A stretch of DNA of 64,000 bases from Magnetococcales bacterium WMHbin3 (GCA_002753185.1 PDZX01000012.1:1-64000); one strand, 5' to 3'. Positions 3-8,352 are shown, numbered from the stretch's first letter. Program-made: numbers and translations. Notes: a model not told the origin generated them from the letters alone.

Positions 3-848
3 GGCCGGGTGGAGTGGCTGGTGCGGAATGGCGAGGAGGGTTTTCTCCTGTTGTCCGACGAGATGAACAAGGAGATGGATCGCATTCGCCGGCAGATTCG
101 CGAGGCGGCCGGAGAGGTGGCGGTTCACGCGCGGGATCTGGTCGAGCGGAGCGGGACGCGGGGCGAGGAGAATCTGCGGGAGCTGGTGGGTGGGGTGACC
201 GAGGAGGTGAAATCCACCTTGCGGGTTCTGGAAGAGAGCCGGGCGCATCGGGACGTGGAGCGGGAAACCCTGTTGCTGGAGCGTCTGCTGACCCGGCACC
301 GGGAGCAGGTGGACGGGGTCCGGGACGCGGTGCGCGAGGAGCTGAACGAGACCGCCCGGCGGCTGGATCTGGCGCGGGAGGAGTCGGGCCGGGAGGTGGT
401 GGACCTCATCGCGCAGCGCGTGGAGGGCGCCTTTGGTGGCGTGGCGCTGGAGTTGGCCGAGATGCGGGACCGGCTGGCCGAAGAGCGGCAGGGGATGGAA
501 AACACGCTGCGGGAGTGGGTGCAAGAGGCCTCCCGTACCTCCATCGAGGAGAACAGTGTGCTGGAACGGCGCATCCAGGAGGTGCGGGCCGATCTGGACG
601 AACGGCATATGGGGATCATCGGGGTGATCGATCAGCTCGGTCAGGGGCTGGAGGACGATCTGGACCGGTTGCGGGACGGGTTGATGCACAAGAACGAGGA
701 GTCGTCACAACATGTGGAGCAGCATTTGAAGGACCTCGGTTCCCTGTTGGAAGGGGTGGTGACCAGTCTCGGTCGCGAGCAGGCGGTTTTCATCGAGATG
801 CTCGGCGAGCGGCTGGACACCTTGCGGCGGCGTTTGAAGGTCAAGTAG
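3..848 (+). CDS. Long coiled-coil protein, 5' end outside window; possible tail of a MotA/ExbB-type motor subunit
   Basis: The reading frame is open to the window edge, so the true start is probably upstream. The internal GTG at position 9 is not a convincing start. The visible 280 or so residues are almost entirely charged heptad-like helix rich in Glu, Arg and Leu, with no membrane segment and no catalytic motif, as in a cytoplasmic coiled-coil domain. It ends 10 bp before the CYTH-CHAD gene, which in turn is 10 bp before a MotB/OmpA-type gene, so the three are probably one operon. In ZorAB-like and other MotA/TolQ-family pairs the MotA-like partner often carries a long coiled-coil tail. 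Assigning this gene to that role is inference from context only, because the diagnostic membrane part would lie outside the window. Confidence 0.6.
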   Translation, partial: GRVEWLVRNGEEGFLLLSDEMNKEMDRIRRQIREAAGEVAVHARDLVERSGTRGEENLRELVGGVTEEVKSTLRVLEESRAHRDVERETLLLERLLTRHREQVDGVRDAVREELNETARRLDLAREESGREVVDLIAQRVEGAFGGVALELAEMRDRLAEERQGMENTLREWVQEASRTSIEENSVLERRIQEVRADLDERHMGIIGVIDQLGQGLEDDLDRLRDGLMHKNEESSQHVEQHLKDLGSLLEGVVTSLGREQAVFIEMLGERLDTLRRRLKVK

Positions 849-858
849 GGGCGGCGTT

Positions 859-2403
859 ATGGCGTATCGCACCTTGCGTTTGGCGATCGGGGATGGCGGG
901 CGGGCCTTCACCCTGGAGGAGCACCCGATGGTGCGCATGGCGTTGGTGGGCAAGCCGCGCCGGGTGGAGCGGGCCGAGACCTTTTTCGACACCCCGGATC
1001 TGCGGCTGCGGCAGTCGGGTTGGACGCTGACCCTGCGTCGGCGGGGGGAGCGGTGGTTCGGCTGCGCCACCTCGACCCGCGAGGAGAGCGAGGGGGTCGG
1101 GGAGTGGGAGTGCGGCCTTGGCGAGGCCACGCCCGACTGGGGGGAGATTCGTCGTCATCTGCCGGAGGCGGCGCGGGAAGGGATCCGGGGCAGAAAGCCG
1201 GAGGCCTTGTTCGAAATGACCTGCGTGGAGGAGCGGGTACGGCTGGAGTTTCCGGACGGCACGCGGATCCAGGCGCGGGAGTTGCGCGGCGAGTCGCGGC
1301 GCGACGGGGTGGTGGAGGAGCGGTTTCACGAGTTGATTCTGGATGCCTTGTCCGGCGCGCCGCAGCGGTTCTTTCATGCCGCGCTGGCCCTGGCTCGGCA
1401 CTATGCCGCGCATCTGGAGCCGATGAGTCCGGCCGATCGTGGGTTTGTCCGTCTCGATGCCGGCTGGCTCGCGCCGGTCCCCCGCCGGGACGCCGGGGTG
1501 GGGCGGGGCGCCGGGGTCCTGGAGGCCTTTACGCTGGCGGGGAGCGGTCTGTTGCAGGAGATTCTGGACAATCTCGCGCCGTTGGCCCACGGTTCCGGGG
1601 CGGTTCGTTTGGCGGCCGCCGAGCGGGTGCGGGGGGCGATGGCGCGTTTGGCGGGGTTGTTCGGTTTGTTTCATCCGCTGTTGCCCGACAAGGTGCGGCG
1701 TGAGCCGGAGGCCGAACTGAACTGGCTGCTGGGCGAGCTGGAGCCTCTGGGGGAGTGGCTGGCGCTGGAGCGGCAGGTGTTGCTTCCCATGCGCGGGCGT
1801 TGCGCGGAGTATGTCCAGCTCGATTCGATCCTCGAAAAACATGGCAGGAAACGCCAATTGGCCGCCGAGCGGGTGGCCGGGGTGGTGGCCTCTGTCCGTT
1901 TCACCCAGTTGATGCTGGGCTTTGCCGGCTGGCTGGTGGGGGTGGAGGAGTTGCGCAACTCCCTGTTGGCGGCCGAGCCGCTGTTGCGGGATCGGTTGAA
2001 CGGGAGCGGGGAGGGGCTGGCGCGGGAGGGGTTGCGTCGCTTGCACAAGCTGCTGGTTGAGCAGGGGGGCAGGTACTGGGAGGCGGAGGGGGCTTTCCGT
2101 GAGCCGGTGGAGCCGCTGGCCCGGGCCGAGGCGATCGCCCATGCCCTGGAGCTGTTTCCCGCCTGGTTCGAGGAGAAGAGGGCGCGTCCCTATCGGGAGG
2201 CCCTGGACGGGGTGGTGGGGAGGTGGCGTGCCCTGGTGGGTCTGGCCGACGCCCGCAGGCTGTGGGACGATCTGGACTCCGGGCGGGACGAGGCGTTGCG
2301 GGCGTTGTTCGCCGGGTGGCATGGGGCGCTGCTGGAGCGGGAGTGGGAGGATGGCCGGCGGGCATGGGGTCAATTCCTCTCTGCTGCGGCGCCGTTCGGG
2401 TGA
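859..2403 (+). CDS. CYTH-CHAD domain protein (predicted triphosphate/polyphosphate-binding)
   Basis: 514 residues. The N-terminal part (about 1-190) looks like a CYTH/triphosphate-tunnel fold: the segment FFDTPDLRLRQSGWTLTLRR is the typical DTPD..L...G..LR.R strand pair, followed by Glu/Arg-rich alternating strands such as VRLEFPDGTRIQARELRGE. The C-terminal part (about 220-510) is all-helical and resembles CHAD, with R..M.RL..L..LFHPLLP and LNWLLGELEPLGEW. CHAD domains bind polyphosphate and CYTH enzymes bind or hydrolyse triphosphates; which applies here is not shown. The gene lies between a coiled-coil gene and a MotB-like gene with 10-bp gaps, which suggests co-expression. Histidine content of the CHAD part looks low, so its polyphosphate affinity is uncertain. 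Confidence 0.75.
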   Translation: MAYRTLRLAIGDGGRAFTLEEHPMVRMALVGKPRRVERAETFFDTPDLRLRQSGWTLTLRRRGERWFGCATSTREESEGVGEWECGLGEATPDWGEIRRHLPEAAREGIRGRKPEALFEMTCVEERVRLEFPDGTRIQARELRGESRRDGVVEERFHELILDALSGAPQRFFHAALALARHYAAHLEPMSPADRGFVRLDAGWLAPVPRRDAGVGRGAGVLEAFTLAGSGLLQEILDNLAPLAHGSGAVRLAAAERVRGAMARLAGLFGLFHPLLPDKVRREPEAELNWLLGELEPLGEWLALERQVLLPMRGRCAEYVQLDSILEKHGRKRQLAAERVAGVVASVRFTQLMLGFAGWLVGVEELRNSLLAAEPLLRDRLNGSGEGLAREGLRRLHKLLVEQGGRYWEAEGAFREPVEPLARAEAIAHALELFPAWFEEKRARPYREALDGVVGRWRALVGLADARRLWDDLDSGRDEALRALFAGWHGALLEREWEDGRRAWGQFLSAAAPFG

Positions 2404-2413
2404 GGGGGGAGTC

Positions 2414-3229
2414 ATGATCGAGCGCATGCGTCAGGCCCGGCGGGGCGGGGATGATGGACCGGGCAATCCGTTCTGGATCAGCTATGCGGATCTGATGACC
2501 GCGCTGGTGATGCTGTTCCTGGTGGTGATGAGCCTTTCCATGGTGACGATCGCCTCGCGGCCGATGGTGGAGAAGAAGCAGCGCGCCGGGGACATCCGGA
2601 CGATTCTGGTCCGTCTGGATCTCATGGCCGAGGAGGTGGGGCTGGACGTGCAGGTCAACCAGGAGGATTTTTCCATCGGTTTCGGCGAGCGGGCGCGTTT
2701 TCCCTTCAACAGCTACCAGTTGACCCCGGAGGCGGTGGAGATCTTGCGTTCGTTCGTGCCGGTTCTGCTGGCGACCCATGCGCGGCCCGACGGGGAGCGC
2801 TGGCTGGAGCGGGTGCATATCGAGGGATACACCGATGCGGTGGGGAGCTATCTGTACAATGTGGACCTCAGCCTGAAGCGGGCCGAGGCGGTATTGTGCG
2901 CCCTGCTGTCGGCGGACCTCCCTCCGGAGCAGTTGCGGCGCTTGCAGGAGTTGCTGGTCATCGACGGGGCCTCGGTGACCGCCATCCAGCCCAGTCCGGA
3001 GGAGAGCCGGCGGGTGGAGGTACGGTTGGAGTTCCGCCGTACCGACGACATCCGCCGCGCGCGTGTTTCCCCGGATCTGCCCCTGGGTCGTTGCGCCATT
3101 CCCATGGAGGAGGCCAGGAAGGGTGGCGTGGCCTCCTCCGAGAAGGGCGTGATGCGCGAGGCCGGGCCGGAGTCGTTGTTTCCTCCCGGCATGGGGATCT
3201 GGTTGGATCAGTTGCGGGAGGCCCCGTGA
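2414..3229 (+). CDS. MotB/OmpA-family stator-like protein
   Basis: 271 residues from the ATG preceded by a GGGGGGAG ribosome site; an upstream extension of the frame overlaps the previous gene and was rejected. Residues about 17-40 form one membrane helix beginning FWISYADLMTALVMLFLVVM. The Asp in the YADLMT segment is the position of the proton-carrying Asp in MotB and ZorB. A linker and an OmpA-like peptidoglycan-binding domain follow, with FPFNSYQLTP, EGYTDAVGSYLYN..LS..RA and a closing ESRRVEVRLEF. The family works with a MotA/ExbB-type channel to convert ion flow into movement. The Y.YN.DLS..RA and ESRRVE motifs recall ZorB-type proteins more than flagellar MotB. The accompanying CYTH-CHAD gene is not a Zorya component. 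Confidence 0.85.
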   Translation: MIERMRQARRGGDDGPGNPFWISYADLMTALVMLFLVVMSLSMVTIASRPMVEKKQRAGDIRTILVRLDLMAEEVGLDVQVNQEDFSIGFGERARFPFNSYQLTPEAVEILRSFVPVLLATHARPDGERWLERVHIEGYTDAVGSYLYNVDLSLKRAEAVLCALLSADLPPEQLRRLQELLVIDGASVTAIQPSPEESRRVEVRLEFRRTDDIRRARVSPDLPLGRCAIPMEEARKGGVASSEKGVMREAGPESLFPPGMGIWLDQLREAP

Positions 3230-4788: not shown

Positions 4789-5469
4789 ATGCCCAATCAA
4801 TCTTTCCTGTTGTTCGGAAAGAGCATGAATCTGGACAAGCAGATCGAGGAATTTCTGAATCTGTTGTCCGAGGCCAATATTATTTTTCGGGGCGGGATCG
4901 GGTTTTACCTGGAAGAGGGGTCGGCTGGGGTGCGGTTTCAGGCCCGTTTGCAGCTTTCCCTGCATCACGAACGGGAAATGGATGCCCTGAGTCGCTTCAT
5001 CGAGGCCCAGTTGCGCACCCAGTTGATCGTGCCCGACCTGCGTGGTGACGTGCTGCAACTGTTGGAACAGCTCAGCCGTCTGCAAAGAATCCTGGTGCGC
5101 AACCTGGATGACGTCAACGTGGAGGCCCCGCTCTTTCCGGCCCCGCTCCATGCGCGCCTGAACGAGTTGTCCCACGCGGTCTCCCTGGCTGTGGAAACCT
5201 GCGTGGAAGCGGGACGGGTCTATTTCAACGAGACCGAAAAGGTGGGTGAATATCTGAGCAAGGTGGCCTTCTACGAAAAGGATGCCGACAAGCTCACCAC
5301 TGCCCTGGTCAAGGAGATCTTCGCTGCCGATCTCCCCCTGGACAGAAAGATGCACCTGCGCCGCTTCGCGGAAAAAGTGGACGAACCCGCCAACAAGGCG
5401 GAAGAGATCGCGGCATGGCTGGCCATCGTCTGCATGAGATATGCCCCCATGCAATCGGCAGTGAATTGA
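4789..5469 (+). CDS. DUF47 (PhoU-like) protein, divergent copy
   Basis: 226 residues, all-helical and soluble, of the DUF47/PhoU-like family that usually accompanies Pit phosphate transporters and is thought to control them. It keeps the family layout: an N-terminal helix pair (IEEFLNLLSEANIIFRGGIG), a middle region resembling ...DDVNVEAPL in place of the usual DREDI, and a C-terminal MHLRRFAEKVDEPANKAEEI bundle. It is clearly more divergent than the four other DUF47 proteins here, lacking their HxIVVQ tail. It is first in a probable operon with a second DUF47 gene and a Pit gene, and its upstream region carries the TTTTGCTGCA repeats. A distinct sensing role is possible but not shown. Confidence 0.75.
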   Translation: MPNQSFLLFGKSMNLDKQIEEFLNLLSEANIIFRGGIGFYLEEGSAGVRFQARLQLSLHHEREMDALSRFIEAQLRTQLIVPDLRGDVLQLLEQLSRLQRILVRNLDDVNVEAPLFPAPLHARLNELSHAVSLAVETCVEAGRVYFNETEKVGEYLSKVAFYEKDADKLTTALVKEIFAADLPLDRKMHLRRFAEKVDEPANKAEEIAAWLAIVCMRYAPMQSAVN

Positions 5470-5526
5470 ATACAAAACAACCAAACAAAAACAAAACACA
5501 ACATCAAAAACCTGAAGGAGAAAAAA

Positions 5527-6222
5527 ATGGGCGGTTCCAGCACGACTTTTTCCAAATTGACCAATCGCGTTTTCCCCCGCATGCCGAATTTCTACGGACT
5601 GATCCTCGAGCAGTGTGATCTGGCCAACCAGGCCGCCGCCCTGCTGGAAGAGTATGTCCAAACCGGCAACAAGTCCCGCGCCGACCAGATCCTCAAGCTG
5701 GAGCAGGATGCCGAGGTGATGCGCCAACGCAACCTGGATGTCCTCAAGAATGCCTTCGCCACTCCCATGGACCGCGAGGACATCTATCGCGCCTACACCA
5801 CCGTGGACTGCATCATCAGCTATGCCCACAACATCGTCTCCGAGATGGACACCCTGAACATCAAGACCGACCAGTACATCACCGACATGGTGGCCACCCT
5901 GCGCAACTCCGTCGAAATCCTGGGCGCCGGCTACAAGAAGCTCTCCTCCTCCCCGGCCGATTCGGACAAGGATGCCCAGCTCGTCGGCGCCGCCCGCAAG
6001 AAGATCGAAAAATCCTATCGCGCCGCCATCGCCAAGCTCTACCAGGGGGACACCTATGTCCAGAAGATGCAGCAGAAGCAGGCCGGCGCGGAAGCCGAGG
6101 CCATGTCCTATGTCCTGGATATCTTCAAACGCCGCGAAATCTATCGTCATCTCTTCGATGCCGCCATCGACATGGGCAGCGCCGGCAAGGTTCTCCATGA
6201 CATCGTGGTTCAGGTCGCCTGA
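5527..6222 (+). CDS. DUF47 (PhoU-like) protein
   Basis: 231 residues from an ATG after GAAGGAG. It is typical DUF47: the central TPMDREDIYRAYTTVDCI motif carries the conserved acidic metal-site residues of PhoU-like bundles, and the C-terminus RREIYRHLFDAAIDMGSAG then VLHDIVVQ is shared with three other genes in this window. It lies 57 bp after the divergent DUF47 gene and 55 bp before a Pit transporter, so it is probably its dedicated partner. Known family members modulate Pit-type transport; the molecular action is not established. Confidence 0.88.
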   Translation: MGGSSTTFSKLTNRVFPRMPNFYGLILEQCDLANQAAALLEEYVQTGNKSRADQILKLEQDAEVMRQRNLDVLKNAFATPMDREDIYRAYTTVDCIISYAHNIVSEMDTLNIKTDQYITDMVATLRNSVEILGAGYKKLSSSPADSDKDAQLVGAARKKIEKSYRAAIAKLYQGDTYVQKMQQKQAGAEAEAMSYVLDIFKRREIYRHLFDAAIDMGSAGKVLHDIVVQVA

Positions 6223-6277
6223 TTCCTGATCCAAAACCCATCAATCGGCCTGTTCGCCAAAAGAGATAGGGAATCCA

Positions 6278-7321
6278 ATGGACGCATCATCTATTCACAT
6301 TCTAATGTGGACGACTATTGTCGTCGTATTGATCTTTGACTACACCAACGGCTTTCATGATGCCTCCAACATCATCGGCAGCATCATCGCCTCCCGTGCC
6401 ATGACCCCGATCCAGTCGGTCGTCGTGGTCGCTGTTTTCGAAATGCTCGGCCCCATGTTGGCAGGGACCGCCGTGGCCAACACCATCGGCAAGTTCATCA
6501 CCATCGGGGATCTTCCAGCATCGGTCTCGATTGTGGTGCTGCTGTGGGGAATTTTCGGGGCCATCTTTTGGAATCTCCTGACCTGGTGGTTCGGTTTGCC
6601 GTCCTCTTCCTCGCATGCCCTGGTGGGAGGATTGCTGGGTGCCGTGGTCATGGCCGCCGGCAGCGACCATGTCTTGTGGGGATTCAAGGAGTTTTTCGCA
6701 ACCGGCAAGCTGACCGGTGTGAACAAGGTGGTCATCGCCTTGATCCTTTCACCGATCCTTGGGTTCATCTTTGGTTATGTGTTCAATAATCTGGTCGGTT
6801 TCCTGCTGACCCCCTGCAAACCCGTGGTCAACAACTGGCTGAAGCGGTTTCAATATCTCAGCGCTGCCACCTTGGCCTTTTCGCATGGGTCCAATGATGC
6901 GCAGAAGAGCATGGGTATCGTTACGCTTTGTCTGGTGTTGGGTGGCGCCCTGCCCAAGTTCGATGTGCCGTTCTGGGTCATTATGGCCTGTGCCGTCTGC
7001 ATCACCCTGGGGATCCTCTCCGGTGGGTGGCGTATCGTGCGTACCGTTGGATTCGGCATCTACAAGGTGCGTCCTCAGCACGCCTTTTCCGCTCAGCTCA
7101 CCGCCGGTACGTTGATCTTCGGCGCTGCCATCTGGGGCGCACCGGTCTCCACCACCCACGTCGCCAGCTCGTCCATCATGGGCGTCGGGACCTCCGACCG
7201 GCCCAAGGCGGTTCGCTGGGCCAAGGCCTCGGAGATCGTTTCCACCTGGGTGATCACCATTCCCGGTTCCGGCCTGGTCTCCGCGATGACCTACTGGCTG
7301 TTCGCCAAGATCGTCTATTGA
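6278..7321 (+). CDS. Pit-family inorganic phosphate transporter
   Basis: 347 residues with about ten hydrophobic helices. Both halves of the Pit/PHO4 family carry the signature: FDYTNGFHDASNIIGSIIAS near the N-terminus and FSHGSNDAQKSMGIV near residue 205. The WGAPVSTTHVASSSIMGVGT segment near the C-terminus is also family-typical. It imports phosphate (or metal-phosphate) with protons across the inner membrane. It follows two DUF47 genes and ends at a strong rho-independent terminator. A second Pit paralogue is at 17484-18539. Confidence 0.93.
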   Translation: MDASSIHILMWTTIVVVLIFDYTNGFHDASNIIGSIIASRAMTPIQSVVVVAVFEMLGPMLAGTAVANTIGKFITIGDLPASVSIVVLLWGIFGAIFWNLLTWWFGLPSSSSHALVGGLLGAVVMAAGSDHVLWGFKEFFATGKLTGVNKVVIALILSPILGFIFGYVFNNLVGFLLTPCKPVVNNWLKRFQYLSAATLAFSHGSNDAQKSMGIVTLCLVLGGALPKFDVPFWVIMACAVCITLGILSGGWRIVRTVGFGIYKVRPQHAFSAQLTAGTLIFGAAIWGAPVSTTHVASSSIMGVGTSDRPKAVRWAKASEIVSTWVITIPGSGLVSAMTYWLFAKIVY

Positions 7322-7333
7322 TTCCAACTGCCC

Positions 7334-7368
7334 TGCCGGTGGAGGTTCGCCTCCACCGGCATTTTTTA
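7334..7368 (+). terminator. Rho-independent terminator after the Pit gene
   Basis: Perfect 12-bp stem TGCCGGTGGAGG / CCTCCACCGGCA with a TTCG tetraloop, followed by a run of Ts. It separates the DUF47-DUF47-Pit unit from the PPK2 gene, which therefore probably has its own promoter. Confidence 0.92.
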
Positions 7369-7509
7369 TAAATGGTCATAATGGGGTTGCATCGTTCCCA
7401 GGCATGAAAGATAATTTCAAATAATTCGAAGCGGGGCGGGCGCAGATTGGCGCGGCATTCCTCTCCCTTCTTTCACCATAACCCGACAGTTTTTTGAGTG
7501 AGGAATGAC

Positions 7510-8352
7510 ATGAGCAACAGGGATCACCACCCGACACGCAACCACCCGGTCGTCCTGGGGACCGGGAGCATGCAGGCGCAACGCTCCGCACCGCCGAAGG
7601 TGAAAAAGATCTCCGAGGCGAAATACCTGGAAATCATCAGCCCGCTCCATATCGAGCTGGTCAAGATGCAAAACTGGGTCAAGGAGAACGGACTCAAGGT
7701 CATCGCCCTGTTCGAGGGTCGCGACGCCTCCGGCAAGGGTGGCACCATCAAGCGGTTCATCGAACACCTGAACCCCCGCGGCTGCCACGTGGTCGCCCTG
7801 GACAAGCCCACCGACCGGGAACGGGGCCAGTGGTACTTCCAGCGCTATGTCGAACACCTCCCCTCGGCGGGCGAGATTCGCATGTTCGACCGCAGCTGGT
7901 ACAACCGTGCCGGGGTGGAACGGGTGATGGGGTTCTGCACCAAGGATCAGGTGCGCGACTTCCTGCGCACCGTGCCGGAATTCGAGCGGATGCTGGTCGC
8001 CTCCGGGGTCATTATTTTCAAGTTCTACTTTTCGGTGAGCAAGGAGGAGCAACTGCGCCGCTTCAACAGCCGCCTGGAGGATCCCCTCAAGCACTGGAAA
8101 CTCTCCCCGGTGGACAAGGAGTCCCAGGACAAGTGGGACGATTACACCAAGGCCAAGGAGGACACGTTTTTTTACTCCTCCACGCCCCACTGCCCGTGGA
8201 CCATCATCAAGTCCAACGACAAGAAACTGGCCCGCATCAACAGCATCAAGTACTTCCTGAGCCGGCTCCCCTATACCGGGAAGAACGAAGAGCTGTTGGA
8301 TTACGACAAACGCATCGTGCGCACGGTCTTCGAGGAGATCGGCATCGATTAA
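7510..8352 (+). CDS. ppk2: Polyphosphate kinase 2 family protein
   Basis: 280 residues from the ATG at 7510; an in-frame GTG four codons earlier is less likely because the GAGG site fits the ATG. The P-loop FEGRDASGKGGTIKRF (about residue 75) and the lid/Walker B region MFDRSWYNRAGVERVMGF are diagnostic of single-domain PPK2. These enzymes move phosphate between polyphosphate and nucleoside diphosphates or monophosphates. The length fits the one-domain class I type; substrate preference (ADP or GDP) cannot be read from sequence here. It lies between the first Pit operon and the sigma54 regulator gene, with which it converges almost end to end (stop codons overlap by 4 bp). Confidence 0.92.
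   Translation: MSNRDHHPTRNHPVVLGTGSMQAQRSAPPKVKKISEAKYLEIISPLHIELVKMQNWVKENGLKVIALFEGRDASGKGGTIKRFIEHLNPRGCHVVALDKPTDRERGQWYFQRYVEHLPSAGEIRMFDRSWYNRAGVERVMGFCTKDQVRDFLRTVPEFERMLVASGVIIFKFYFSVSKEEQLRRFNSRLEDPLKHWKLSPVDKESQDKWDDYTKAKEDTFFYSSTPHCPWTIIKSNDKKLARINSIKYFLSRLPYTGKNEELLDYDKRIVRTVFEEIGID

What the first reader, a model, noticed from the sequence alone, without database searches (positions are those of the whole stretch)
3..3229. CYTH-CHAD protein between a long coiled-coil protein and a MotB/OmpA stator-like protein
Seen: three tightly spaced same-strand genes; the third has a single membrane helix with Asp in YADLMT and an OmpA fold with ZorB-like motifs; the second has CYTH and CHAD-like domains. 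Known: MotA/MotB-type pairs drive ion-powered machines, including Zorya; CYTH/CHAD bind triphosphate and polyphosphate. Inference: an ion-driven envelope machine with a polyphosphate- or nucleotide-responsive component, not matching known Zorya gene sets.
Basis: partly seen in the sequence, partly recalled or inferred. Interest (0 to 1): 0.65.

Follow-up and report, generated by a model that had tools for sequence, protein, structure and literature searches.

The report
Zorya-like motor with CYTH-CHAD partner
Magnetic, compass-carrying cocci (Magnetococcales) carry, as an inherited chromosomal gene set, a cell-wall-anchored ion-driven motor built like the anti-phage Zorya motor but without its DNA-attacking parts, and in the window's own genus it sits directly behind a gene for MamK, the actin that lines up magnetosomes.

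Summary
The three genes are real and form an operon. Gene 1 is not an unrelated coiled coil: it is the C-terminal part of a ZorA-type motor subunit cut by the contig edge. Its membrane part lies on another contig of the same genome and is complete in a sister species. Gene 3 is a ZorB-type subunit; both have the solved ZorAB motor as best structural match. Gene 2 has a true CYTH-CHAD fold (closest: E. coli YgiF), but catalytic and polyphosphate-binding residues are lost, which weakens the triphosphate/polyphosphate-sensor idea. Across Magnetococcales the set is ZorA-CYTH/CHAD-HDOD-ZorB. The window's genus lacks HDOD and has a MamK paralogue 13-85 bp upstream of zorA; one family lacks CYTH-CHAD. 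No ZorC, D, E, F or G partner was found. The locus follows taxonomy, keeps its flanks between families, and was seen in no other order and on no viral contig. ZorA tails range from about 770 to 2,865 aa but end in one conserved tip motif absent from true Zorya. I read it as an order-specific, probably non-defence ZorAB-type transmission coupling cell wall to cytoplasm, linked to MamK in this genus. Its cellular role is inferred, not shown.

The parts
3..848 (+). C-terminal coiled-coil tail (281 codons) of a ZorA-type motor subunit, cut by the contig edge; the membrane part is on contig C143 of the same genome (L212, 3-704 minus)
   Evidence: 94% identity to residues 509-789 of the complete ZorA-type protein L063:1676-4045; C143 N-terminus 91% identical to residues 1-222; ZorA1 PADLOC E=1.7e-55 for the complete protein; A2 profile vs 8qyy/8qyd ZorA E~1e-43
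777..845 (+). ZorA tail tip EQAVFIEMLGERLDTLRRRLKVK, conserved in this system and absent from Zorya I and magnetosome-cluster ZorA tails
859..2403 (+). CYTH-CHAD protein (514 aa), YgiF-like fold with degenerate active sites
   Evidence: CHAD Pfam; model pLDDT 90.6; Foldseek YgiF E=8.9e-14; residue loss
2414..3229 (+). ZorB-type subunit: one transmembrane helix with D26 and an OmpA-type peptidoglycan-binding domain
2489..2491 (+). codon of the invariant transmembrane Asp (D26, YADLMT) expected to carry the ion
   Evidence: invariant in 32 aligned ZorB-type proteins; the matching D24 is essential in Zorya I and II (PMC11890865)

Best explanation
A ZorAB-type ion-driven motor that is not a known Zorya type and is most likely not a defence system. 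SHOWN from sequence: a ZorA-type membrane subunit with a long tail, a ZorB-type subunit with the ion-carrying Asp and a peptidoglycan-binding domain, a CYTH-CHAD pseudo-enzyme and (in most families) an HDOD protein form one conserved, apparently vertically inherited locus of Magnetococcales; the ZorA tail varies almost fourfold in length but keeps a conserved tip; in the window's genus HDOD is missing and a MamK actin paralogue leads the operon. INFERRED: ZorB clamps the wall, ion flow turns or strains ZorA, and the tail carries that motion or signal tens to hundreds of nm into the cytoplasm, where its tip docks a conserved partner. CYTH-CHAD and HDOD act as adaptor and output rather than as enzymes. 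In the window's genus the output is coupled to a MamK filament, which would tether or move magnetosomes or another cytoplasmic cargo relative to the wall.
For: ZorA/ZorB identity. Invariant D26 and OmpA residues. Four-gene order in families f1 (genus 2), f2, f4, f7, f10, f11, f12; three-gene variants in f8 and in the window's genus. Vertical inheritance: families group in the ZorB tree and are separated from true Zorya ZorB with 100/100 support. Shared flanks: ammonium transporter and P-II genes upstream in f8 and f11; fatty-acid hydroxylase and GGDEF-EAL genes downstream in f7 and f11. Loci of this type came only from Magnetococcales in a scan of 84,980 species and from no viral contig. No ZorC/D/E/F/G model hits gene 2 or HDOD. 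Tip motif specific to this system. Upstream gene matches solved MamK at E~1e-108 and is adjacent in every genome of the genus whose contig reaches far enough.
Against: No functional data. Three Magnetococcales families (f5, f13, f14) lack it although they carry mamK, so it is not needed for magnetotaxis in general. MamK linkage is confined to one genus, and the MamK tree does not put all linked copies in one clade. ZorAB proteins of known function are anti-phage. The tail-docking and motion steps are inference.
Confidence: 0.55

Rival explanations
1. A new type of Zorya anti-phage defence in which CYTH-CHAD and HDOD proteins are the effectors recruited by the ZorA tail in place of ZorC/D or ZorE.
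For: ZorA and ZorB are closest to Zorya I proteins; all ZorAB pairs of known function defend; HDOD is related to HD phosphohydrolases.
Against: No nuclease or helicase partner; PADLOC blank for gene 2 and no credible hit for HDOD. Order-wide inheritance with shared housekeeping flanks instead of the patchy pattern expected of defence genes; Zorya I loci co-exist in the same genomes (G005, G020, G037).
Confidence: 0.22
2. One reading: an ion-driven envelope machine gated by polyphosphate or triphosphates through the CYTH-CHAD protein.
For: True CYTH-CHAD fold; magnetotactic cocci are known for phosphorus stores (cited in PMC6783814); a PhoU-like/PiT/PPK2 cluster lies 1.6-5 kb downstream in this genome and G001.
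Against: Equivalents of YgiF R56 absent in 24/24 and E160 in 23/24 members, no ExExK; CHAD H253/R256/R260/R296/R418 equivalents not conserved, Lys position mostly acidic; phosphate genes adjacent only in two species; family f8 lacks the protein.
Confidence: 0.12
3. A house-keeping envelope stabiliser like Tol-Pal or a motility accessory stator, unrelated to any cytoplasmic cargo.
For: Wall-binding OmpA domain and single TM helix as in MotB/TolR systems; order-core distribution.
Against: Long cytoplasmic tail with a conserved tip and two dedicated partners without predicted membrane segments; Pfam MotA_ExbB not hit and ZorA models best by far.
Confidence: 0.11

Closest known systems
Zorya type I anti-phage system (ZorA-ZorB-ZorC-ZorD)
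   Same: ZorA membrane core and ZorB (TM Asp, OmpA domain) are clear homologues; long cytoplasmic ZorA tail; compact operon
   Different: No ZorC or ZorD; CYTH-CHAD and HDOD instead; extra N-terminal hydrophobic segment in ZorA; tail 770-2,865 aa total with a different, conserved tip; order-wide inheritance
ZorA-ZorB-ZorC-like trio of Magnetococcales magnetosome gene clusters (seen as EH-signature, MotB and apolipoprotein-like genes in PMC6783814)
   Same: Giant ZorA-type tail plus ZorB-type partner in the same bacteria
   Different: Only distant similarity (ZorA E 1e-12 to 1e-20, ZorB 1e-3 to 1e-8), different tip, EH-signature third gene, no CYTH-CHAD or HDOD
YgiF (inorganic triphosphatase, CYTH-CHAD)
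   Same: Same two-domain fold (Foldseek E=8.9e-14)
   Different: Catalytic and polyphosphate-binding residues not conserved; encoded inside a motor operon
MotAB flagellar stator
   Same: Ion-driven A/B architecture, wall-anchored B subunit
   Different: Not the nearest family; long cytoplasmic tail
MamK magnetosome actin
   Same: Upstream gene in the window's genus is a MamK paralogue (PDB 5jyg/5ljv/5ljw E~1e-108)
   Different: Not the copy in the magnetosome gene cluster (about 51% identical to it)

Membership tests
ZorAB-type ion-driven motor | ZorA-type MotA/TolQ membrane core followed by a long cytoplasmic tail | tested here: met
   Complete homologue L063: PADLOC ZorA1 1.7e-55; A2 profile vs ZorA 8qyd 1.4e-43
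ZorAB-type ion-driven motor | ZorB-type subunit: single TM helix with Asp, OmpA wall-binding domain | tested here: met
ZorAB-type ion-driven motor | 5:2 assembly and ion-powered movement | not testable with these tools
   needs cryo-EM and mutants
Zorya type I | ZorC (EH signature) and ZorD (helicase-nuclease) in the operon | tested here: not met
   No such genes between or directly beside zorA and zorB in loci of this type; they are present in the separate Zorya loci L092-L098 by gene order, confirmed by PADLOC for L095
Zorya types II and III | ZorE, or ZorF and ZorG, partners | tested here: not met
   PADLOC: no hit for the CYTH-CHAD proteins and only weak unrelated hits for HDOD
Anti-phage defence system | Patchy, mobile distribution | tested here: not met
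   Order-wide, groups by family, conserved flanks; none on viral contigs
Anti-phage defence system | Protection against phage | not testable with these tools
   experiment needed
CYTH / triphosphate tunnel metalloenzyme | Tunnel fold | tested here: met
   Foldseek matches to 5a60, 7ns8, 2jmu
CYTH / triphosphate tunnel metalloenzyme | ExExK, catalytic Arg (YgiF R56) and invariant metal Glu (YgiF E160) | tested here: not met
   Profile alignment to YgiF and column check: R56 equivalent Arg in 0/24, E160 equivalent Glu in 1/24
CHAD polyphosphate-binding module | Two four-helix bundles | tested here: met
   6qv5 E=5.3e-7 and 6qva/6qv7
CHAD polyphosphate-binding module | Basic residues H253, R256, R260, R296, R418 (CtCHAD numbering) | tested here: not met
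   the motifs are kept in the genome's other, canonical CHAD protein L001
MamK | Upstream gene of the genus closest to solved MamK among actin-like proteins | tested here: met
   (5jyg, 5ljv, 5ljw; identified as MamK entries from general knowledge)

The most novel reading that the evidence does not exclude
Magnetococcales use ZorAB-type wall-anchored ion motors as part of the magnetoskeleton: the long ZorA tail connects the cell wall to MamK filaments and so tethers, positions or moves magnetosomes in cocci that lack mamJ and mamY. The operon-linked MamK in this genus and the separate ZorA-ZorB-ZorC-like trio inside the magnetosome gene cluster would be two outcomes of the same trend.
Probability: 0.2. 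Interest if true: 0.88.

Novelty: new variant of a known kind. Interest (0 to 1): 0.62.

Why it matters
All ZorAB motors of known function are anti-phage. An order-wide, inherited ZorAB machine with other partners suggests that this motor type also serves ordinary cell biology, and gives a natural experiment on what the long tail is for (free length, fixed tip). The adjacency to MamK offers a concrete, testable candidate for an open question stated in the literature: which protein links MamK to the magnetosomes in cocci that lack MamJ and MamY (PMC6783814). It also warns that annotation tools may count these loci as Zorya defence.

Tried and rejected
Pfam alone finds no CYTH in gene 2 and no MotA in ZorA; profile, fold and PADLOC searches were needed. 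Checked whether gene 2 could be a disguised ZorC: the ZorC structure 8r68 is in the PDB sequence set but not among the 50 best fold matches of gene 2. Thought the downstream PhoU-like/PiT/PPK2 genes might make this a polyphosphate locus: adjacent only in the window genome and G001. Thought CYTH-CHAD might be the ligand of the conserved ZorA tip: rejected as sole ligand, because f8 lacks CYTH-CHAD and keeps the tip; HDOD likewise, because the window's genus lacks it. Search for the system on viral contigs: none. Paper searches for a described CYTH-CHAD/ZorAB or Magnetococcus Zorya system found none.

Full report
WHAT IS THERE. The window starts at base 1 of contig C97 of a 4.6-Mb draft genome. 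Three same-strand ORFs, 3-848 (open at the contig start), 859-2403 and 2414-3229, are separated by 10 bp each and followed by a convergent desulfoferrodoxin gene. The nearest named relatives are Magnetococcales; Ca. Magnetaquicoccus inordinatus UR-1 is in the same family (G015 contig C63 has the length of NZ_RXIU01000155). G027 has the size I recall for Magnetococcus marinus MC-1 (inference).

GENE 1 IS THE TAIL OF A MOTOR SUBUNIT. In sister genome G001 the complete gene is 789 codons (L063:1676-4045). The window fragment is 94% identical to its residues 509-789, and contig C143 of the window's own genome carries residues 1-222 at 91% at its edge; the middle was not recovered. The complete protein has four hydrophobic segments and matches PADLOC ZorA1 at 1.7e-55; a profile of 21 homologues matches the solved ZorA of ZorAB (8qyd, 8qyk, 8qyy) at about 1e-43.

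GENE 3 IS A ZorB-TYPE SUBUNIT. PADLOC ZorB1 9.9e-63, NCBIfam ZorB1 1.8e-51 (below its cut-off), PDB 8qyd chain F 2.7e-41. D26, in the membrane helix, and several OmpA-domain residues are invariant in 32 homologues including ZorB of Zorya loci. In Zorya I and II the corresponding Asp, peptidoglycan binding and the ZorA tail are all needed for function (PMC11890865).

GENE 2 IS A CYTH-CHAD PSEUDO-ENZYME. The model (pLDDT 90.6) matches YgiF, plant and Chlorobium CHAD domains and several triphosphate tunnel enzymes. I aligned the family profile to YgiF and read columns in 24 members, using the YgiF residues defined in PMC4641920: the R56 equivalent is never Arg, the invariant metal Glu (E160) is Glu in one of 24, and there is no N-terminal ExExK. 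The polyphosphate-contacting CHAD residues defined in PMC6537752 are not conserved, and one of the usual Lys positions is mostly acidic. A canonical CHAD elsewhere in the same genome keeps these motifs (L001). YgiF chain numbering was taken as native plus two, the only small offset that puts Arg at 56 and Glu at 160 and 162.

CONSERVATION. A profile table over the fetched loci shows ZorA, CYTH-CHAD, HDOD, ZorB in that order in Magnetaquicoccus and in families f2, f4, f7, f10, f11 and f12 (in at least two Magnetaquicoccus genomes as two separate pairs); ZorA, HDOD, ZorB without CYTH-CHAD in f8; and MamK, ZorA, CYTH-CHAD, ZorB without HDOD in the window's genus. HDOD was identified by Pfam. ZorB of this type is found in 31 of 48 order genomes at about 1e-59 or better. 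It is not found in f5, f13 and f14, which still have mamK. The ZorB tree groups families f8, f11 and each genus of f1 and separates all rows of this type from Zorya ZorB with full support. Flanking genes are shared between families: ammonium transporter and P-II upstream in f8 and f11, fatty-acid hydroxylase and GGDEF-EAL downstream in f7 and f11. A scan of genome contigs of 84,980 species returned this type only from Magnetococcales; the other hits match only the Zorya-like core, and those with readable downstream genes have ORFs of ZorC and ZorD size, though these were not profiled. The scan needed exact matches to two short peptides, so distant versions could be missed. A sample of 398 Pseudomonadota genomes gave only weaker ZorA hits outside the order. 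No viral contig encodes it.

TAIL AND TIP. ZorA lengths run from 770 aa to an open frame of 2,865 aa, yet the last 25 or so residues (EQxxFIEMLGERLxxLRxRLxxK) are conserved in every family whose tail end could be read (L078 has masked bases there). ZorA tails of Zorya I loci and of the magnetosome-cluster trio end differently. A free-length rod with a fixed end is what one expects of a part that must reach and hold a partner. Because f8 lacks CYTH-CHAD and the window's genus lacks HDOD, neither alone can be the universal partner.

MamK. In the window's genus the gene upstream of zorA matches solved MamK filaments (E~1e-108). It is on the same contig and strand, 13 to 85 bp from zorA, in G000, G001, G002, G005, G007 and G010, with a fragment in G009. 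It is an extra MamK copy, about 51% identical to the magnetosome-cluster copy. The MamK tree mixes linked and unlinked copies, so the pairing may involve replacement. PMC6783814 reports a second mamK in UR-1, absence of mamJ and mamY in the available genomes of this group, and that the protein linking MamK to magnetosomes is unknown.

JUDGEMENT. Identity as a ZorAB-type machine outside known Zorya gene sets is firm. A non-defence role is likely but inferred from inheritance, partners and context. Coupling to MamK or to any cargo is a hypothesis.

Noticed in passing
L197:5788-12015 (own genome, contig C103), also L199-L210: A second, distant ZorA-ZorB pair followed by an EH-signature (ZorC-like, PADLOC ZorC1 3.8e-46) gene, without ZorD in the stretch read, lies about 8-20 kb from mamK in the magnetosome gene cluster in several Magnetococcales families; PMC6783814 saw these genes but did not call them Zorya-like.
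   Followed up: partly
L092-L098: Loci with Zorya type I gene order (ZorA-ZorB-ZorC-ZorD) occur in several of the same genomes, so one genome (G005) can hold three different ZorAB systems; ZorC/ZorD identity was profiled for L095 only.
   Followed up: partly
window 4789-8352: Two PhoU-like (DUF47) genes, a PiT phosphate transporter and PPK2 lie downstream; adjacent also in G001 but not in the other genomes of the genus that were read.
   Followed up: partly
L213 7334-8473, L214 7820-8959, L215 7302-8384: Further MamK paralogues outside the magnetosome cluster and not next to zorA.
   Followed up: partly
L069 371-1179 and 5705-6450: In G009 both zorA and zorB are broken by frame shifts; either assembly error or decay.
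   Followed up: no
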